Of a stretch of DNA of 64,000 bases, positions 7,403 through 42,939 are shown piece after piece; the first letter of the stretch is position 1, and the number at the start of each line of letters is the position of its first letter. Both the position numbers and the translations under genes were made by a program. Source of the DNA: a virus; IMG/VR virus record IMGVR_UViG_3300042298_003052, positions 62,001-126,000 of that record; one strand, 5' to 3'. Under the pieces are notes generated by a model. It ran no database searches, was not told the origin of the DNA, and saw only the letters and a list, made by a program, of their open reading frames with translations.

Positions 7403-8359
7403 TTACGCGCCCAGAGGAGGCGTATAGACGTTAGACAGAGGATCGAACGCGCCAGTAGGTGCAGTATACTTGAAGGAGGAACCTTGGAACTGAAGGTCAG
7501 CCTGCACTGTAATAAGGTCTTGTACAGGTGAACTTTGATTACCAGAGGTCAAAATGGCAGCTCCAGCAAATTCTTCACCAAAGGGGCGTCTGAGGGTAGC
7601 GTAAATTTCAGAACCAAAGAAGCGATCGTCGTAAAGAATCTTCATGAGAAGATCAGCACCGGGATCGCCAATAATTCTTTGGAAAGTGAATGACATGGTT
7701 CTGTTACTACCTGTAGTAACCATTTCCATACCACTACCACTGAGGAAGTTGGCTGCGTCAACAGTCTTGGGCTGAGAAGACGGAGAAGCGTCAGTGGCAC
7801 CAGCGATGTAAACGGTAGCTGTAGTTTTAGCTGTATGGTTTTCAACAGCTAAAACAGTAGTAGGTTGAACTTGTAGACGTGTAGCGCCAGCAGGAGCAAA
7901 ATCGCTTACCGTTACACTATACGCACCATTGTTAAATGTCAGTTTCTCACCAGGATAGATATTGGTGGGAAGGGTCGTAACAGGTAACACTTCACTACCG
8001 ACAGTCAGCACAGAGGCGTCTACAGTACCAGCAGTGGAAGCAGGAATAGCTGCTGACAACGGGTACAAAAGAGTTACCGCTGTAGCACCAGTCACCGCTG
8101 TGCTAGTACGAGCTTCAACACCGTTTGCAAAACGAATCTTGGAAAAAGCAGGAATAGTGGCAGTAGCAGCAAGTGTCAACGAAGTGGCACCTTTAGCTGT
8201 AGGAGCTGCCGAAGTGGTAACGTTGATCGCAGCAGTAGCCGCTCCTACAGTAACAGTATATTCCGTAGGTACCCGAGTACCTTTAGGAAGAAGCACAAAC
8301 CGAAGTTCTGTAAATACGCTAGTGCCTCGTTCGCTAGCGTAGTTGATAATTTGTCCCAT
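7403..8359 (-). CDS. Major tail tube protein
   Basis: 318 residues, rich in Ala/Thr/Val and short beta stretches. The middle (residues ~55-190) has two loosely repeated blocks (SLTLAATATIPAFSKIRFAN and TNIYPGEKLTFNN...ATRLQVQ), perhaps inserted Ig-like or decoration modules. AGGAGG sits 9 nt before the ATG, and a strong terminator follows. Position between the tail completion genes and the chaperone, plus a strong ribosome site, supports tail tube. Sequence alone is less decisive. Confidence 0.7.
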   Translation of the reverse strand: MGQIINYASERGTSVFTELRFVLLPKGTRVPTEYTVTVGAATAAINVTTSAAPTAKGATSLTLAATATIPAFSKIRFANGVEARTSTAVTGATAVTLLYPLSAAIPASTAGTVDASVLTVGSEVLPVTTLPTNIYPGEKLTFNNGAYSVTVSDFAPAGATRLQVQPTTVLAVENHTAKTTATVYIAGATDASPSSQPKTVDAANFLSGSGMEMVTTGSNRTMSFTFQRIIGDPGADLLMKILYDDRFFGSEIYATLRRPFGEEFAGAAILTSGNQSSPVQDLITVQADLQFQGSSFKYTAPTGAFDPLSNVYTPPLGA

Positions 8360-8372
8360 GTAGAGTTTCCTC

Positions 8373-8798
8373 CTAAACAGTGATTAAGTTAACGACTTTG
8401 ACAGCTTCCAACAGAAAAGTCCGTTGTGGAAATTGATCCTCAGTTACTTCCACGGCTCTTTCCCGATGAAGGGGGAAACGCCTACGGATTTTGTCGATCG
8501 CACTATCCCATTTGGCTAATCCTGAAGAGGAATAGTCATTATTGATAAGTGTTACTCGCCAATACATGCGCTGGATAGCCTGAGGTACACCAACGCAAGG
8601 TTTTTGTGGTTGTAGAACATCTTGATTACGCGCAACCACAATCTTTACACCGGAAAAAGTGCGTTTGGAAGGAATGAAGGGAGGTTCCACCCAAAACGCT
8701 TTTGTTCCGTCATCAAATGTTCCAAGTTCGTTATTCAACAAAGATCTTAGATCTGTTACTAACGCTGATATATCGTTAGGAGTTTTTATCGCGTTCAT
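8373..8798 (-). CDS. Tail terminator / tail completion-like protein
   Basis: 141 residues (MNAIKTPNDISALVTDLRSLL...), mixed alpha/beta, with GGAGG 7 nt before the ATG. It overlaps the upstream gene by 4 bases (ATGA type). In HK97/lambda-like gene order the gene just before the tail tube is the tail terminator, which caps the tube. Assigned by position. Confidence 0.55.
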   Translation of the reverse strand: MNAIKTPNDISALVTDLRSLLNNELGTFDDGTKAFWVEPPFIPSKRTFSGVKIVVARNQDVLQPQKPCVGVPQAIQRMYWRVTLINNDYSSSGLAKWDSAIDKIRRRFPLHRERAVEVTEDQFPQRTFLLEAVKVVNLITV

Positions 8799-34950: not shown

Positions 34951-35340
34951 ATGGCTATCGAGTGTTACATTGCCGGTTGTAATATAGACGAATGCAAAGC
35001 TTTACGCGATCTGTTAGTCGAAAAAGGATATGAAATTACGGCAAAGTGGTTAGATGAACCTTTTCGTCGTACACTGACGTATAGTGTAGAAGATCGTCAT
35101 CGTATAGCTAATATGGATAGAGACGATGTTCTGAGATCTGATCTTTTAATTCACTTGGCTACAGATCGCTATATCCCTGGTGGCAAGTTTGTTGAAGTTG
35201 GTATCGCCATAGGTGCTAACATTCCGGTCATCAACGTAGGTCACCAAGAAAATATGTTGATGTGGTGTGATTCTGTTGAAACCGTTGCTACACAAGAAGA
35301 AGCGATCCTTCTGTTAGAAAGACGAATCCTAGGATTGTAG
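34951..35340 (+). CDS. Nucleoside 2-deoxyribosyltransferase-like enzyme
   Basis: 129 residues. The pattern fits the small nucleoside deoxyribosyltransferase fold: YIAGC N-terminal strand, RDDVLRSDLLIHLATD, then GGKFVEVGIAIGANIPVIN with the catalytic-type Glu, and a C-terminal helix. Family members exchange bases of deoxynucleosides or cleave modified nucleotides, so a role in phage nucleotide metabolism is expected. AGAGGAA precedes the ATG. Its last 47 nt are nearly identical to the end of the next gene. Confidence 0.65.
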   Translation: MAIECYIAGCNIDECKALRDLLVEKGYEITAKWLDEPFRRTLTYSVEDRHRIANMDRDDVLRSDLLIHLATDRYIPGGKFVEVGIAIGANIPVINVGHQENMLMWCDSVETVATQEEAILLLERRILGL

Positions 35341-35401: not shown

Positions 35402-35677
35402 ATGTTTGATATTATTGAGATATTGATGCGTCAACCTAGCAAGCTTGCAAAAGTCGTAACAGCAATTGATGAGTCTGTTAGTACCTCAATGCTTTACGGG
35501 GACTATAGTTACATACAAACCACTGTACCAAAAGTCGTAGAAAAATTAGAAGAAAAAGACTACTCTATGCTGTTGCGTGTTCTCATGTACAAAACTAAGA
35601 GAGATAAAACCTCAGCAGCCACACCTTTTTATGAAGAAGCGATCCTTCTGTTAGAAAGACGAATCCTAGAATTGTAG
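35402..35677 (+). CDS. Unknown protein sharing its C-terminus with the preceding gene
   Basis: 91 residues from the ATG at 35402 (MFDIIEILMRQP). The last 11-14 residues (EEAILLLERRILEL) come from the duplicated 47 bp; the rest is unrelated to the deoxyribosyltransferase-like gene. Probably made by a recombination event that copied a gene end. Confidence 0.55.
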   Translation: MFDIIEILMRQPSKLAKVVTAIDESVSTSMLYGDYSYIQTTVPKVVEKLEEKDYSMLLRVLMYKTKRDKTSAATPFYEEAILLLERRILEL

Positions 35678-35710: not shown

Positions 35711-36994
35711 GTGATATATCATAAAGATCTGACCATGCAGATTGAAGGCAAACAGGTTCCTTCAGGCAGGGTTCGGGTTAGTGGAGCAAAAAACGCTGCC
35801 ACCCGCCTGATGGCAGCATCAATGCTTACGGACGAAACCATTAACCTACTTAACTTCCCAACCCAACTACTTGATGTTCAATACAAGGCAAGGTTTATCG
35901 AGTTAATGGGGGGAAAGGTCAGCCTTGATTCGACTGCATCCTTCAATTGTTCCAATCTAAAACCCCAGGAATTAGAAGACTATAGATTTCCTATTAGAAC
36001 GACCTATTTATTAGCCGCCGGTCAATTAATTCGAGAAGGAAACGCCTATATCCCCTATCCAGGGGGATGTAATATTGGTAGTCGCAAGTATGACTTACAC
36101 ATAATGATCTGGCACTCCTTAGGGTGTCAGGTAGAAGAAAAGCCAGATCATATTAGGGTTAGTGGTCAGCTCGTCGGCGGTGACATTCATTTCCCCATAT
36201 CCACCGTGGGAGGCACAGAGAATGCCATATTATGTGCTGTAGTTGCTAGGGGAACTACAAGAATCTACAATGCCTATGTCACCCCCGAAATCGAAAACCT
36301 GATTAACTTACTCATCTTAATGGGGGCGCAAATATCGGTAAGTGGCACCAGTCTAATCGAGATTCAGGGGGTTAGGCAGCTAAGGGGAGCAACGATTCCT
36401 ATCATTCCTGATCGCATTGAAGCTTTAACCTGGATTATCCTATCTGCGATCTCTGGTGGTAATGTTCTAGTTGAGAATGTTCCCTTCAATCTAATGGAAA
36501 TTCCCTTAGTCTACCTCCGTAGAATAGGGCTTGATTTCTTCCAAAACTCTAATTCGGTTTGGGTTTCGCCACAGTCAATCGCTCCCTCCGGATTACAGCC
36601 CTTTGAAGTAGCCTGTGGTACTCACCCCGGCATCATATCCGATATGCAACCTTTTTATGTGCTTCTAGCTTTGTATGCTAAGGGTAGAAGTCTAATCCTT
36701 GACTATCGCTATCCAGAGCGCACTACCTACCTTGAGGAATTATCTAGATTTTACCCTAATTGTATAACCTGGAACTCAGGAAAAATCATCGTCAATGGAT
36801 GTCAACGCTCAGGTTCGGCAGTGGTAACATCAACGGACTTGCGAGGTAGTATGGCCTTGGTGATGGCAGCAATTATCAATCATGGACCTAGTCAAGTCAG
36901 GAAGGTAAATATGGCCCTACGAGGCTATGATCAACTACAAACAAAACTTGGAGGGCTAGGCATAGTTCATAGCATTAACAAAGACGATGAGTGA
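35711..36994 (+). CDS. murA: MurA (UDP-GlcNAc enolpyruvyl transferase) homologue
   Basis: 427 residues, full family length. SGAKNAATRLMAASML near the start (family K-N pair), catalytic-loop Cys in PYPGGCNIGSRKYDLH, GIISDMQPFYV (family Asp) and STDLRGSMALVMAA (family Arg) are all present, so it looks active. MurA makes the first committed peptidoglycan precursor. GTG at 35711 or ATG at 35735 (MQIEGKQV) may be the start. The gene is almost free of GCGATCGC while its neighbours have it, suggesting separate origin. Overlaps the glycosyltransferase gene by 8 bases. Confidence 0.85.
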   Translation: MIYHKDLTMQIEGKQVPSGRVRVSGAKNAATRLMAASMLTDETINLLNFPTQLLDVQYKARFIELMGGKVSLDSTASFNCSNLKPQELEDYRFPIRTTYLLAAGQLIREGNAYIPYPGGCNIGSRKYDLHIMIWHSLGCQVEEKPDHIRVSGQLVGGDIHFPISTVGGTENAILCAVVARGTTRIYNAYVTPEIENLINLLILMGAQISVSGTSLIEIQGVRQLRGATIPIIPDRIEALTWIILSAISGGNVLVENVPFNLMEIPLVYLRRIGLDFFQNSNSVWVSPQSIAPSGLQPFEVACGTHPGIISDMQPFYVLLALYAKGRSLILDYRYPERTTYLEELSRFYPNCITWNSGKIIVNGCQRSGSAVVTSTDLRGSMALVMAAIINHGPSQVRKVNMALRGYDQLQTKLGGLGIVHSINKDDE

Positions 36995-37856
36995 TTTAAT
37001 TAGTATTGTAACGGGCTTCTATAATCGCGGCAACCTTGTTAGAACCTCTATCGGCAGCCTATTAAGACAAACCTACACAAACCTTGAGATCATTGCCTTC
37101 GATGATTGTTCAACGGACCATACCTACGAAGAGTTACTAAAGTTTCAAGATCCACGACTTAGAGTAATTCGTCATTCCATAAACATTGGTTTTGTTAATG
37201 GATTACTCAACGCCATTGAACAATCATCTGGTGACTATATTGCCATCCATGGTTCAGGAGATATTTCCTATCCAACACGATTGGAAAAACAATATAGACT
37301 TCTAAAGGACGATCGCGATCTTAGTGCTGTGGGTTGTAATGTTTTCGATTGTGATATGTCTCATGGAGGTAATATATATCGACGTACTAGAGTATGCGAT
37401 CATCCTGATAACTTTCAATATTCATTAATCAACGGTCGTAATTGCTTCACTGGTGGAGAAGTAATGATAAGAAAATATCACTACGATCGCATTGGTGGTT
37501 ATCGAAAAGCTTTTTATTATGCCCAGGATAGAGATCTATGGCTTAGACTGATAGAAATATCCAAACTGGGTTTTGTTGATGAAGTTCTATATAAAAGGTT
37601 ATTTATATCTAACAGCATACGATTTAACATTGATAAAATACTGATACAAAGAAGATATTCAGAATTGGCTAGACAATGTGCCGAGATGAGACTGGATAAT
37701 CAATGTGATCTAGTTGATCTGTACGGCCAAAATGCGATCAACTTTTTAAGCAAATCTAAAAGATTGTCAGAGTTTTACAAAAACCTCTTTGAAACATACC
37801 AATATAGAGACACGGTTTTTGCAAACAGATGCTATGATCTATACATCGATTCTTAA
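36987..37856 (+). CDS. Family 2 glycosyltransferase
   Basis: 289 residues. GT-A start ISIVTGFYNRGNLVRTSIGS, nucleotide-binding FDDCSTDHT, GSGDISYPTRLEKQ in place of the usual DxD line, and AQDRDLWLR (the ED-type acceptor motif) identify GT2. Coupled to murA by overlapping starts. Could modify host surface glycan, peptidoglycan intermediates or phage DNA/proteins; linkage to murA favours a wall or surface role. Confidence 0.85.
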   Translation: MSDLISIVTGFYNRGNLVRTSIGSLLRQTYTNLEIIAFDDCSTDHTYEELLKFQDPRLRVIRHSINIGFVNGLLNAIEQSSGDYIAIHGSGDISYPTRLEKQYRLLKDDRDLSAVGCNVFDCDMSHGGNIYRRTRVCDHPDNFQYSLINGRNCFTGGEVMIRKYHYDRIGGYRKAFYYAQDRDLWLRLIEISKLGFVDEVLYKRLFISNSIRFNIDKILIQRRYSELARQCAEMRLDNQCDLVDLYGQNAINFLSKSKRLSEFYKNLFETYQYRDTVFANRCYDLYIDS

Positions 37857-38740: not shown

Positions 38741-38925
38741 TAGTCTCATATACCGTAGAGAACTGGATCTCACAAGAACCTAAAACCTTAGACGTTGATC
38801 GCAACGAAGCGATCGAACTTCAATGTGCTAAAGATTTTGCCTCAACTAATGGTTATCTATGGCCACTCACGTTTAATATCTTTGTTGATGGCGATCTTCT
38901 GAAGTCAACCACGGTGGTTCTATGA
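38737..38925 (+). CDS. Unknown small protein
   Basis: 62 residues from the ATG at 38737, which overlaps the previous stop (ATGA). Beta-rich (SYTVENWISQEP, TFNIFVDGDLL). Ends in an ATGA overlap with the next gene, so the three are co-translated. Confidence 0.65.
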   Translation: MIVSYTVENWISQEPKTLDVDRNEAIELQCAKDFASTNGYLWPLTFNIFVDGDLLKSTTVVL

Positions 38926-39296
38926 AAGGTATTCTTTGGTTAACTGTCCCATCTGCTCTAAAAGATTTTGCACAAATAAAACCTATATACCCAAACGGAA
39001 ATCCTCATCATATAACCTTAGTCTTTGGAACAGAAGAACATATCTTCAAAGATGTCATTGGCAAAAGAGTGTTCGTATTAGCCTATGAAAACTGCTGGAA
39101 CGATCGCATACAAGCAGTCCGTGTACAATTACCAAACGATATACCATGTGTTAATCGACATCCACACATAACAGTCAGTTACGCCCCTGGTGTAGAACCA
39201 AAGGAAAGTAATATCATGCTAGCAAGTGAACATCAATCAAATAAAGTTTCTTTCAGCTTTTATACGATCGTCGAATTTCATAAATGGTCACCCTAA
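38922..39296 (+). CDS. 2H-phosphoesterase-like protein
   Basis: 124 residues. The two H-x-T/S-x motifs of the family are present: NPHHITLVFG (~30) and RHPHITVSYA (~90), with beta strands between. Family members act on cyclic or 2'-5' phosphodiester bonds of RNA; some phage members (Acb1) destroy cyclic nucleotides of CBASS defence. Which activity this one has cannot be read. Confidence 0.65.
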   Translation: MKGILWLTVPSALKDFAQIKPIYPNGNPHHITLVFGTEEHIFKDVIGKRVFVLAYENCWNDRIQAVRVQLPNDIPCVNRHPHITVSYAPGVEPKESNIMLASEHQSNKVSFSFYTIVEFHKWSP

Positions 39297-41760: not shown

Positions 41761-42939
41761 ATGCAAACTTTACTATTTGACCTATCACAATTCACTACAG
41801 CGATAGAATCTAGTATTGAAGTTTGCTGTGTAGAATGCAGTCAAGATCTTGACACCGATGATGTTATAGAAATAGATGATTCTATCTATTGTAATGATTG
41901 TGTATGCTACTGTGATCATTGCGATAATGCAACATTGGAAGATGATCTAGAGACAGTGTACACGAGGGAATACTCTAGAGACCCAGAGAGATACTGCAAT
42001 AACTGTGTAAAAAAAGAAACGTTTACATGCGATGATTGTGATAATCATCATAGTGATGATTTATCAGAATACCATATTGAAGATAATGGTAAGACAATTT
42101 GTAGTAAATGTTATGAATACGGTTATTTTTGCTGTGGTGATTGTGATAATTATTATAGTGATTCTAGCGCAAACTATACAGAAGATAGCACGTATTGTGA
42201 TAGTTGTTATGTAAACCACGTTAAGAGCGATCGTATTAAAGATTACAACTATAATCCATTAGATGAGTTAGATTTTTTAGGGAATCCTAAGGATGATTTA
42301 TATCTGGGGTTAGAACTAGAGGTTTATACAAGCGATGATTTGAATGATACCGCTAACACAGTATCAGACTTATTGGATGGTTACGCTATCCTTAAGGAGG
42401 ATAGTAGTATCTCTATGCCTGGATTTGAGATAGTTACAGCCCCATGTAGTTTAGCTATCCACAGAGAAAAGATAACAGAATTTTTCTCTAATAATCCAGA
42501 TATTGACACCGATGATGATCATAATATAGGTTTGCATGTTCATATCAGTAGAAAGCCTATATCTCAATTATCTATTGGTAAGATGTTAGTGTTTATTAAT
42601 AATCCTGATAATCAGGATAACATAATAGAATTATCTGGGAGAAATCCTAGTAAGTGGGCAAAATTAAGCCCTAAGAAAATAACCGATGTTAAGAAAAAAC
42701 AATCGTCTCGCTATGAAGCGATAAATCTGCAAAATAACGATACTATAGAGTTTAGAACTTTTACATCTACTATAGATCCTAAGCTGATTTTAGCTAGATT
42801 AGAATTCGTTCACTGTTTAACCGTATGGGTTAAAGATCAATCTATGTTAGAATTAACTTGGAATAATTTTACGGATTACGTTAGGGAACATAAGGCGTTA
42901 TATCCTAACTTAGTAGAATGGTTAGAAAATAATAACTAA
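41761..42939 (+). CDS. Zinc-finger protein with amidoligase-like C-terminal domain
   Basis: 392 residues. Residues ~22-155 hold at least five C-x2-C knuckles (CVEC, CNDC, CDHC, CDDC, CSKC, CGDC, CDSC), LIM/RING-like. Residues ~180-360 carry YLGLELEVY, GFEIVTAPCSL, GLHVHISRKPIS and EFRTFTSTIDPKLILARLEF, the pattern of the phage amidoligase (Amidoligase_2, glutamine-synthetase-like) family that makes amide bonds between COOH and NH2 groups. Very Asp-rich overall. Flanked by direct repeats, so possibly a mobile cassette. Confidence 0.75.
   Translation: MQTLLFDLSQFTTAIESSIEVCCVECSQDLDTDDVIEIDDSIYCNDCVCYCDHCDNATLEDDLETVYTREYSRDPERYCNNCVKKETFTCDDCDNHHSDDLSEYHIEDNGKTICSKCYEYGYFCCGDCDNYYSDSSANYTEDSTYCDSCYVNHVKSDRIKDYNYNPLDELDFLGNPKDDLYLGLELEVYTSDDLNDTANTVSDLLDGYAILKEDSSISMPGFEIVTAPCSLAIHREKITEFFSNNPDIDTDDDHNIGLHVHISRKPISQLSIGKMLVFINNPDNQDNIIELSGRNPSKWAKLSPKKITDVKKKQSSRYEAINLQNNDTIEFRTFTSTIDPKLILARLEFVHCLTVWVKDQSMLELTWNNFTDYVREHKALYPNLVEWLENNN

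What the first reader, a model, noticed from the sequence alone, without database searches (positions are those of the whole stretch)
35711..37856. Phage murA coupled to a glycosyltransferase
Full-length MurA with catalytic-loop Cys (PGGCNIG), K-N pair (SGAKNAA), SDMQ and DLRGS motifs, overlapped by a GT2 gene. MurA starts wall synthesis; carriage by a phage suggests wall supply during long infection or a modified sugar pathway. Rare in phages to my knowledge.
Basis: partly seen in the sequence, partly recalled or inferred. Interest (0 to 1): 0.74.

Follow-up and report, generated by a model that had tools for sequence, protein, structure and literature searches.

The report
Cyanophage MurA-paralogue surface-sugar cassette
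A large freshwater virus, probably of cyanobacteria, carries a cell-wall-type enzyme (MurA) whose gene overlaps that of a sugar-transferring enzyme; relatives show that this pair belongs to gene sets that build the cell's outer sugar coat, so the virus probably remodels its host's surface rather than feeding its cell wall.

Summary
In detail: window 35711-36994 encodes a full-length MurA-type enolpyruvyl transferase with all catalytic residues, overlapped by a GT2 gene (36987-37856), inside a 139-kb tailed-phage record. The wall-supply reading is not favoured. The phage MurA groups not with housekeeping MurA but with a rare alphaproteobacterial paralogue (51% identity to one on a Haematobacter plasmid; housekeeping mostly 32-37%). 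That paralogue ("MurA2", my label) sits in surface-polysaccharide loci, usually beside a MurB paralogue and a specific GT2. The phage GT2 belongs to that same GT2 subfamily (its best plasmid hits are the very same loci). Of five murA2 loci found by MurA alone, four also carry the GT2; 0 of 80 housekeeping murA loci do. The phage lacks MurB, as do two of nine bacterial loci. Both phage genes are under purifying selection (dN/dS 0.09 and 0.14). HIP1 enrichment (62 against 0.7 expected) points to a cyanobacterial host. Best explanation: a phage cassette making a muramic-acid-type (or enolpyruvyl) sugar donor and adding it to the host's surface glycan, perhaps to change phage adsorption. Product and infection role are inferred. 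No other murA cargo was found in IMG/VR apart from this phage's own kin.

The parts
35711..36994 (+). murA2: MurA-type UDP-GlcNAc enolpyruvyl transferase of the surface-polysaccharide paralogue clade (427 aa)
36059..36085 (+). catalytic loop PGGCNIGSR, with Cys120 (= E. coli C115) and Arg125 (= R120)
36987..37856 (+). GT2 glycosyltransferase, soluble (no predicted membrane helix), subfamily with G[SA]GD in place of the usual DxDD; start codon overlaps the murA2 stop by 8 bp

Best explanation
The pair is a phage-borne form of a bacterial surface-polysaccharide module (murA2, usually murB2, and a specific GT2). Proposed working: MurA2 transfers enolpyruvate from PEP to UDP-GlcNAc (chemistry inferred from the conserved active site); the host's MurB reduces the product to UDP-MurNAc (inferred; no MurB found in the phage record), or the enolpyruvyl sugar is used as it is; the coupled soluble GT2 transfers that acidic sugar to a lipid-linked glycan repeat of the host, so the exported outer glycan (LPS, capsule, sheath or slime) carries a lactyl- or enolpyruvyl-GlcNAc residue. 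The likely benefit is an altered surface of the infected or carrier cell, above all blocking adsorption of competing phages, comparable in effect to gtr/oac serotype conversion. Shown here: enzyme identity, active-site conservation, subfamily, conserved linkage to the GT2, purifying selection, phage context. Inferred: activity, product, acceptor, benefit.
For: MurA subfamily: nearest relative 51% identical over 421 aa on Haematobacter plasmid pOT1-6, next 35-40% on other alphaproteobacterial plasmids; housekeeping MurA mostly 32-37%. Tree of 132 MurA: the phage rows and seven polysaccharide-locus paralogues form one group, SH-aLRT 99, phage + Haematobacter 100; placing the phage with housekeeping MurA is rejected (AU p 0.001) and the grouping stays without Haematobacter. 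GT2: its best 8 plasmid hits are loci also found with MurA (34-39% identity). Blind test: of five murA2 loci fetched by MurA alone, four carry this GT2 within about 4 kb; L186 has murA2-GT2 directly adjacent without murB, the phage arrangement; 0 of 80 housekeeping murA loci have the GT2 within 3 kb. Surroundings: UDP-sugar dehydrogenase and epimerase, Wzz, flippase, export protein, acyltransferase. Selection: dN/dS 0.089 MurA, 0.144 GT2, dS about 0.125. N-acetylmuramic acid is known in a capsule, Vibrio vulnificus ATCC 27562 (PMC7247339). Phage-encoded receptor-glycan modification is established (PMC11436027).
Against: No activity, product or acceptor is known for any member of the module. 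The relatives found are Alphaproteobacteria while the phage looks cyanobacterial; cyanobacterial chromosomes could not be searched, so a host module or closer relative may exist. No integrase or resolvase was found, so lysogenic conversion is not demonstrated. The GT2 family lacks the DxD metal motif, so its catalysis is uncertain. Long branches in the MurA tree (warns of them).
Confidence: 0.62

Rival explanations
1. Wall supply: phage MurA boosts UDP-MurNAc for peptidoglycan, keeping the host cell sound through a long infection; the GT2 is incidental.
For: All MurA catalytic residues are kept, the fold is MurA, so it could feed the peptidoglycan pool; both genes are under purifying selection.
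Against: Phylogeny separates it from housekeeping MurA; MurA2 and this GT2 co-occur in polysaccharide loci on independent replicons; no MurB in the record (other mur genes not searched).
Confidence: 0.12
2. The pair modifies something phage-made (virion glycoprotein or DNA base) with the MurA-derived sugar.
For: Phages do glycosylate virions and DNA (general knowledge); the GT2 is soluble.
Against: Relatives of both genes lie in bacterial surface-polysaccharide loci beside flippase, Wzz and export genes, not in virion or DNA modification loci.
Confidence: 0.1
3. Target replacement: a spare, divergent MurA protects the infected cell from MurA inhibitors such as those made by competing phages.
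For: Some phages make MurA inhibitors (A2 protein; the PDB holds a MurA-A2 complex model, rank 43), so a divergent MurA could be an immunity copy.
Against: Catalytic Cys120 is kept, so fosfomycin sensitivity is expected; the conserved pairing with a GT2 is unexplained.
Confidence: 0.06
4. Bacterial DNA wrongly joined to a phage contig, or a decaying transfer without function.
For: Contamination explains several 'phage murA' records.
Against: Same pair in the same place in three IMG/VR records with phage genes on both sides; HIP1-core density in the cassette is near the genome average (7 sites, about 8 expected) and GC 41% against 39%; dN/dS far below 1.
Confidence: 0.03

Closest known systems
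MurA (UDP-GlcNAc 1-carboxyvinyltransferase, EC 2.5.1.7), NF006873/PRK09369, TIGR01072
   Same: Fold, length, catalytic residues; scores over the NF006873 cut-off.
   Different: Below the TIGR01072 equivalog cut-off (321 against 392.7 bits); outside the sampled housekeeping clade; linked to a GT2, not to peptidoglycan or core genes.
murA2-murB2-GT2 loci on alphaproteobacterial replicons (Haematobacter pOT1-6, Qingshengfaniella, Rhizobium gallicum group, Agrobacterium sp. MA01)
   Same: Same MurA clade and same GT2 subfamily, same pairing; L186 has the same two-gene order without murB.
   Different: Phage lacks MurB and a surrounding polysaccharide cluster; different GC content and probably a different host phylum.
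Phage serotype-conversion systems (gtrABC, oac)
   Same: Phage-encoded enzymes expected to alter a host surface glycan; weak GT2 match to phrog_841 GtrB-like (E 2e-4).
   Different: GT2 has no membrane helices, so is not GtrB; the phage would supply a new nucleotide sugar through MurA; no flippase seen nearby.
phrog_25097 (viral family of unknown function)
   Same: 278 bits over full length; evidently a MurA-type family.
   Different: Members could not be inspected; may be host genes flanking prophages.

Membership tests
MurA / EPSP synthase superfamily enolpyruvyl transferase | PF00275 match and MurA-type fold | tested here: met
   158 bits; TM about 0.9 to MurA structures
MurA / EPSP synthase superfamily enolpyruvyl transferase | MurA catalytic residues K22, N23, R91, C115, R120, D305, D369, R371, R397 (E. 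coli numbers) | tested here: met
   K27, N28, R96, C120, R125, D311, D376, R378, R404; residue roles from general knowledge of MurA
Housekeeping MurA equivalog | score over TIGR01072 cut-off | tested here: not met
   321 against 392.7 bits
Housekeeping MurA equivalog | branches among bacterial housekeeping MurA | tested here: not met
   (cyanobacterial MurA not sampled)
Housekeeping MurA equivalog | forms enolpyruvyl-UDP-GlcNAc in vitro; complements a murA mutant | not testable with these tools
   needs an experiment
murA2-GT2 surface-polysaccharide module (defined here) | MurA in the murA2 clade | tested here: met
   SH-aLRT 99 and 100
murA2-GT2 surface-polysaccharide module (defined here) | partner GT2 of the same subfamily nearby | tested here: met
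   39% identity to Qingshengfaniella GT2; overlapping ORFs
murA2-GT2 surface-polysaccharide module (defined here) | MurB paralogue (present in 7 of 9 bacterial loci; not treated as defining) | tested here: not met
   no PF02873 match in the 139-kb record; also none at L175 and L186
Gtr O-antigen conversion | GtrB: GT2 with C-terminal membrane helices | tested here: not met
   no hydrophobic segment
Gtr O-antigen conversion | GtrA flippase next to it | tested here: inconclusive
   no multi-helix ORF of 90 aa or more nearby by hydropathy; GtrA profile not searched

The most novel reading that the evidence does not exclude
An undescribed surface-sugar pathway in which a dedicated MurA supplies an acidic, muramic- or enolpyruvyl-type sugar to a non-peptidoglycan glycan through a GT2 subfamily that has lost the DxD motif; a cyanobacterial phage captured the minimal two-gene form, without MurB, so the transferred sugar could be the enolpyruvyl-GlcNAc itself, used to disguise the host's surface.
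Probability: 0.2. Interest if true: 0.78.

Novelty: new variant of a known kind. Interest (0 to 1): 0.58.

Why it matters
MurA is taken as the committed step of peptidoglycan synthesis. A phage that carries a MurA belonging to surface-polysaccharide loci suggests that this chemistry also builds outer glycans, and gives a compact two-gene system to test it. It also adds a new type of cargo by which phages may change host surfaces, here probably in freshwater cyanobacteria where receptor biology is little known, and it is a caution against reading 'murA' in viromes as wall metabolism.

Tried and rejected
Peptidoglycan supply by a host-derived MurA: rejected as the main reading by phylogeny and neighbourhood. 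Contamination: rejected (three records, HIP1, synteny). Phage MurB elsewhere in the record: none; the extra gene after GT2 in the sister record L173 is an actin-like protein, not MurB. Other viral murA cargo: L016-L021 look like host murA beside prophages. Records G003-G009 give no match to the pair; for G005 and G009 the contigs appear to end before it, so absence is uninformative. Gammaproteobacteria (369 genomes) and the phylum of the Nitrospira genome G017 (376) gave no murA2 at the strict cut-off (the tool warns that an empty answer shows little). Literature searches found no phage murA study and no description of the module; PMC3877843 only lists murA among virome metabolic genes in a paper about contamination. 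Pseudanabaena phage PA-SR01 has similar size and GC but different reported gene content; its sequence was not compared.

Full report
WHAT IS THERE. Window 35711-36994 (+) is a complete MurA-type gene and 36987-37856 (+) a complete GT2 gene; the GT2 start lies inside the murA end (ATGAGTGA), which suggests coupled translation. The record is an IMG/VR virus of 139,448 bp with tail-tip J, baseplate, helicase, PhoH, endolysin and other phage genes. Two more records of the same virus carry the pair, one identical over 17 kb and one at 97% MurA identity with rearranged flanks. All residues known to be needed for MurA catalysis are present and the predicted structure superposes on MurA crystal structures at TM about 0.9. 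The low-confidence stretch of the model, residues 118-124, is the catalytic loop.

NOT THE HOUSEKEEPING MurA. The protein passes the PRK09369 cut-off but not the TIGR01072 equivalog cut-off. Its nearest relatives are MurA paralogues on alphaproteobacterial plasmids: Haematobacter massiliensis pOT1-6 (51% over 421 aa), Qingshengfaniella alkalisoli (40%), Rhizobium gallicum-group megaplasmids (36-37%), Agrobacterium sp. MA01 (35%). In a tree of 132 sequences the two phage copies and seven such paralogues form one group (SH-aLRT 99) with phage + Haematobacter at 100. Forcing the phage in with housekeeping MurA is rejected (p-AU 0.001), and the grouping survives removal of Haematobacter. The paralogue is rare: with the A2 profile 3 of 397 genomes of the Paracoccus family carry it, scoring 614-703 bits against at most 351 for housekeeping copies; 1 of 385 Alphaproteobacteria stands out; 2 of 398 in the order of Sinorhizobium; 0 of 369 Gammaproteobacteria. 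Limits: the housekeeping set was drawn by similarity to the query and holds no cyanobacteria; the tree tool warns of long branches.

A CONSERVED MODULE. In Haematobacter and Qingshengfaniella the paralogue is followed by a MurB paralogue, and in Qingshengfaniella next by a GT2. That GT2 is 39% identical to the phage GT2 over 274 aa. Searching plasmids with the phage GT2 alone returned loci already found with MurA as its eight best hits. Among nine bacterial murA2 loci, eight have this GT2 nearby and seven have murB2. The five loci obtained by MurA alone are a fair test: four have the GT2, one of them (L186) as murA2-GT2 directly adjacent without murB, exactly the phage form. None of 80 housekeeping murA loci has it within 3 kb. 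The neighbours are surface-polysaccharide genes: UDP-sugar dehydrogenase, epimerase, Wzz/tyrosine kinase, flippase, export protein, O-antigen ligase, acyltransferase. The 'murA2' name and the module are my definitions; no paper describing them was found.

PHAGE VERSION IS IN USE. Between the two phage variants dN/dS is 0.089 (MurA) and 0.144 (GT2) at dS about 0.125. GC and HIP1-core density of the cassette match the rest of the genome, so it is not a recent import.

HOST. HIP1 (GCGATCGC), a hallmark of cyanobacterial genomes (PMC4390886), occurs 34 times in the window against 0.4 in shuffles, and 62 times in the record against 0.7 by base composition. Planktothrix phage PaV-LD shows the same excess (27 against 0.3), a Rhizobium phage only a slight one (6 against 1.4). 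The DnaB's best named hit is PaV-LD (46%). Several GC-rich palindromes are wholly absent, as expected from restriction avoidance. A cyanobacterial host is therefore likely but not proven.

HOW IT MOST LIKELY WORKS. MurA2 makes enolpyruvyl-UDP-GlcNAc; host MurB, if needed, makes UDP-MurNAc; the soluble GT2 (no membrane helix) adds the sugar to a host glycan precursor. N-acetylmuramic acid in a capsule is known from Vibrio vulnificus (PMC7247339). The benefit is probably a changed surface that blocks other phages, as for gtr and oac (PMC11436027); this last step is an analogy. An oddity is that all six aligned members of the GT2 subfamily have G[SA]GD where chondroitin synthase and relatives have DSDD, so metal use or donor binding may differ.

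VERDICT. Observation confirmed; wall-supply reading disfavoured; modified-sugar reading supported and made specific. New variant of phage-borne surface-glycan modification, with the chemistry and the benefit to the phage still to be shown by experiment.

Noticed in passing
whole window; 34 sites: HIP1 palindrome GCGATCGC is enriched about 85-fold, and palindromes such as CTCGAG, GGGCCC, GCATGC and GTCGAC are absent from the 139-kb record: cyanobacterial host signature with restriction-site avoidance.
   Followed up: partly
L173:10079-11344: In the 97%-identical sister record an actin-like gene (weak ALP_N/MreB-like match) sits directly after the GT2; absent there in the window. Possible segregation gene of a phage-plasmid.
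   Followed up: partly
window 35296-35340 and 35633-35677: A direct repeat of about 45 bp ends two neighbouring ORFs; the sister record has two extra small ORFs here instead, so the left flank of the cassette is a rearrangement site.
   Followed up: partly
window before 5307 (record 52089-67307, minus strand): A single ORF of 5072 aa in the position of a tape-measure protein, implying a very long tail if so.
   Followed up: no
GT2 subfamily (A4), phage GT2 residues 89-92: The canonical DxDD of GT2 enzymes is replaced by G[SA]GD in all six aligned members.
   Followed up: partly
window 38922-39296 and 41761-42939; record 134049-134810 and 7833-8531: Further unusual cargo: tRNA-ligase-type phosphodiesterase domain, amidoligase-like protein, formylglycine-generating-enzyme-like protein, FHA-domain protein.
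   Followed up: no
public phage records, e.g. CAKLQF020000038.1 (L011), AGRM01000002.1 (L012): Records filed as phages that are plain bacterial chromosome (rpoN-murA-his with 5S rRNA; Salmonella), a trap for claims of phage murA.
   Followed up: yes
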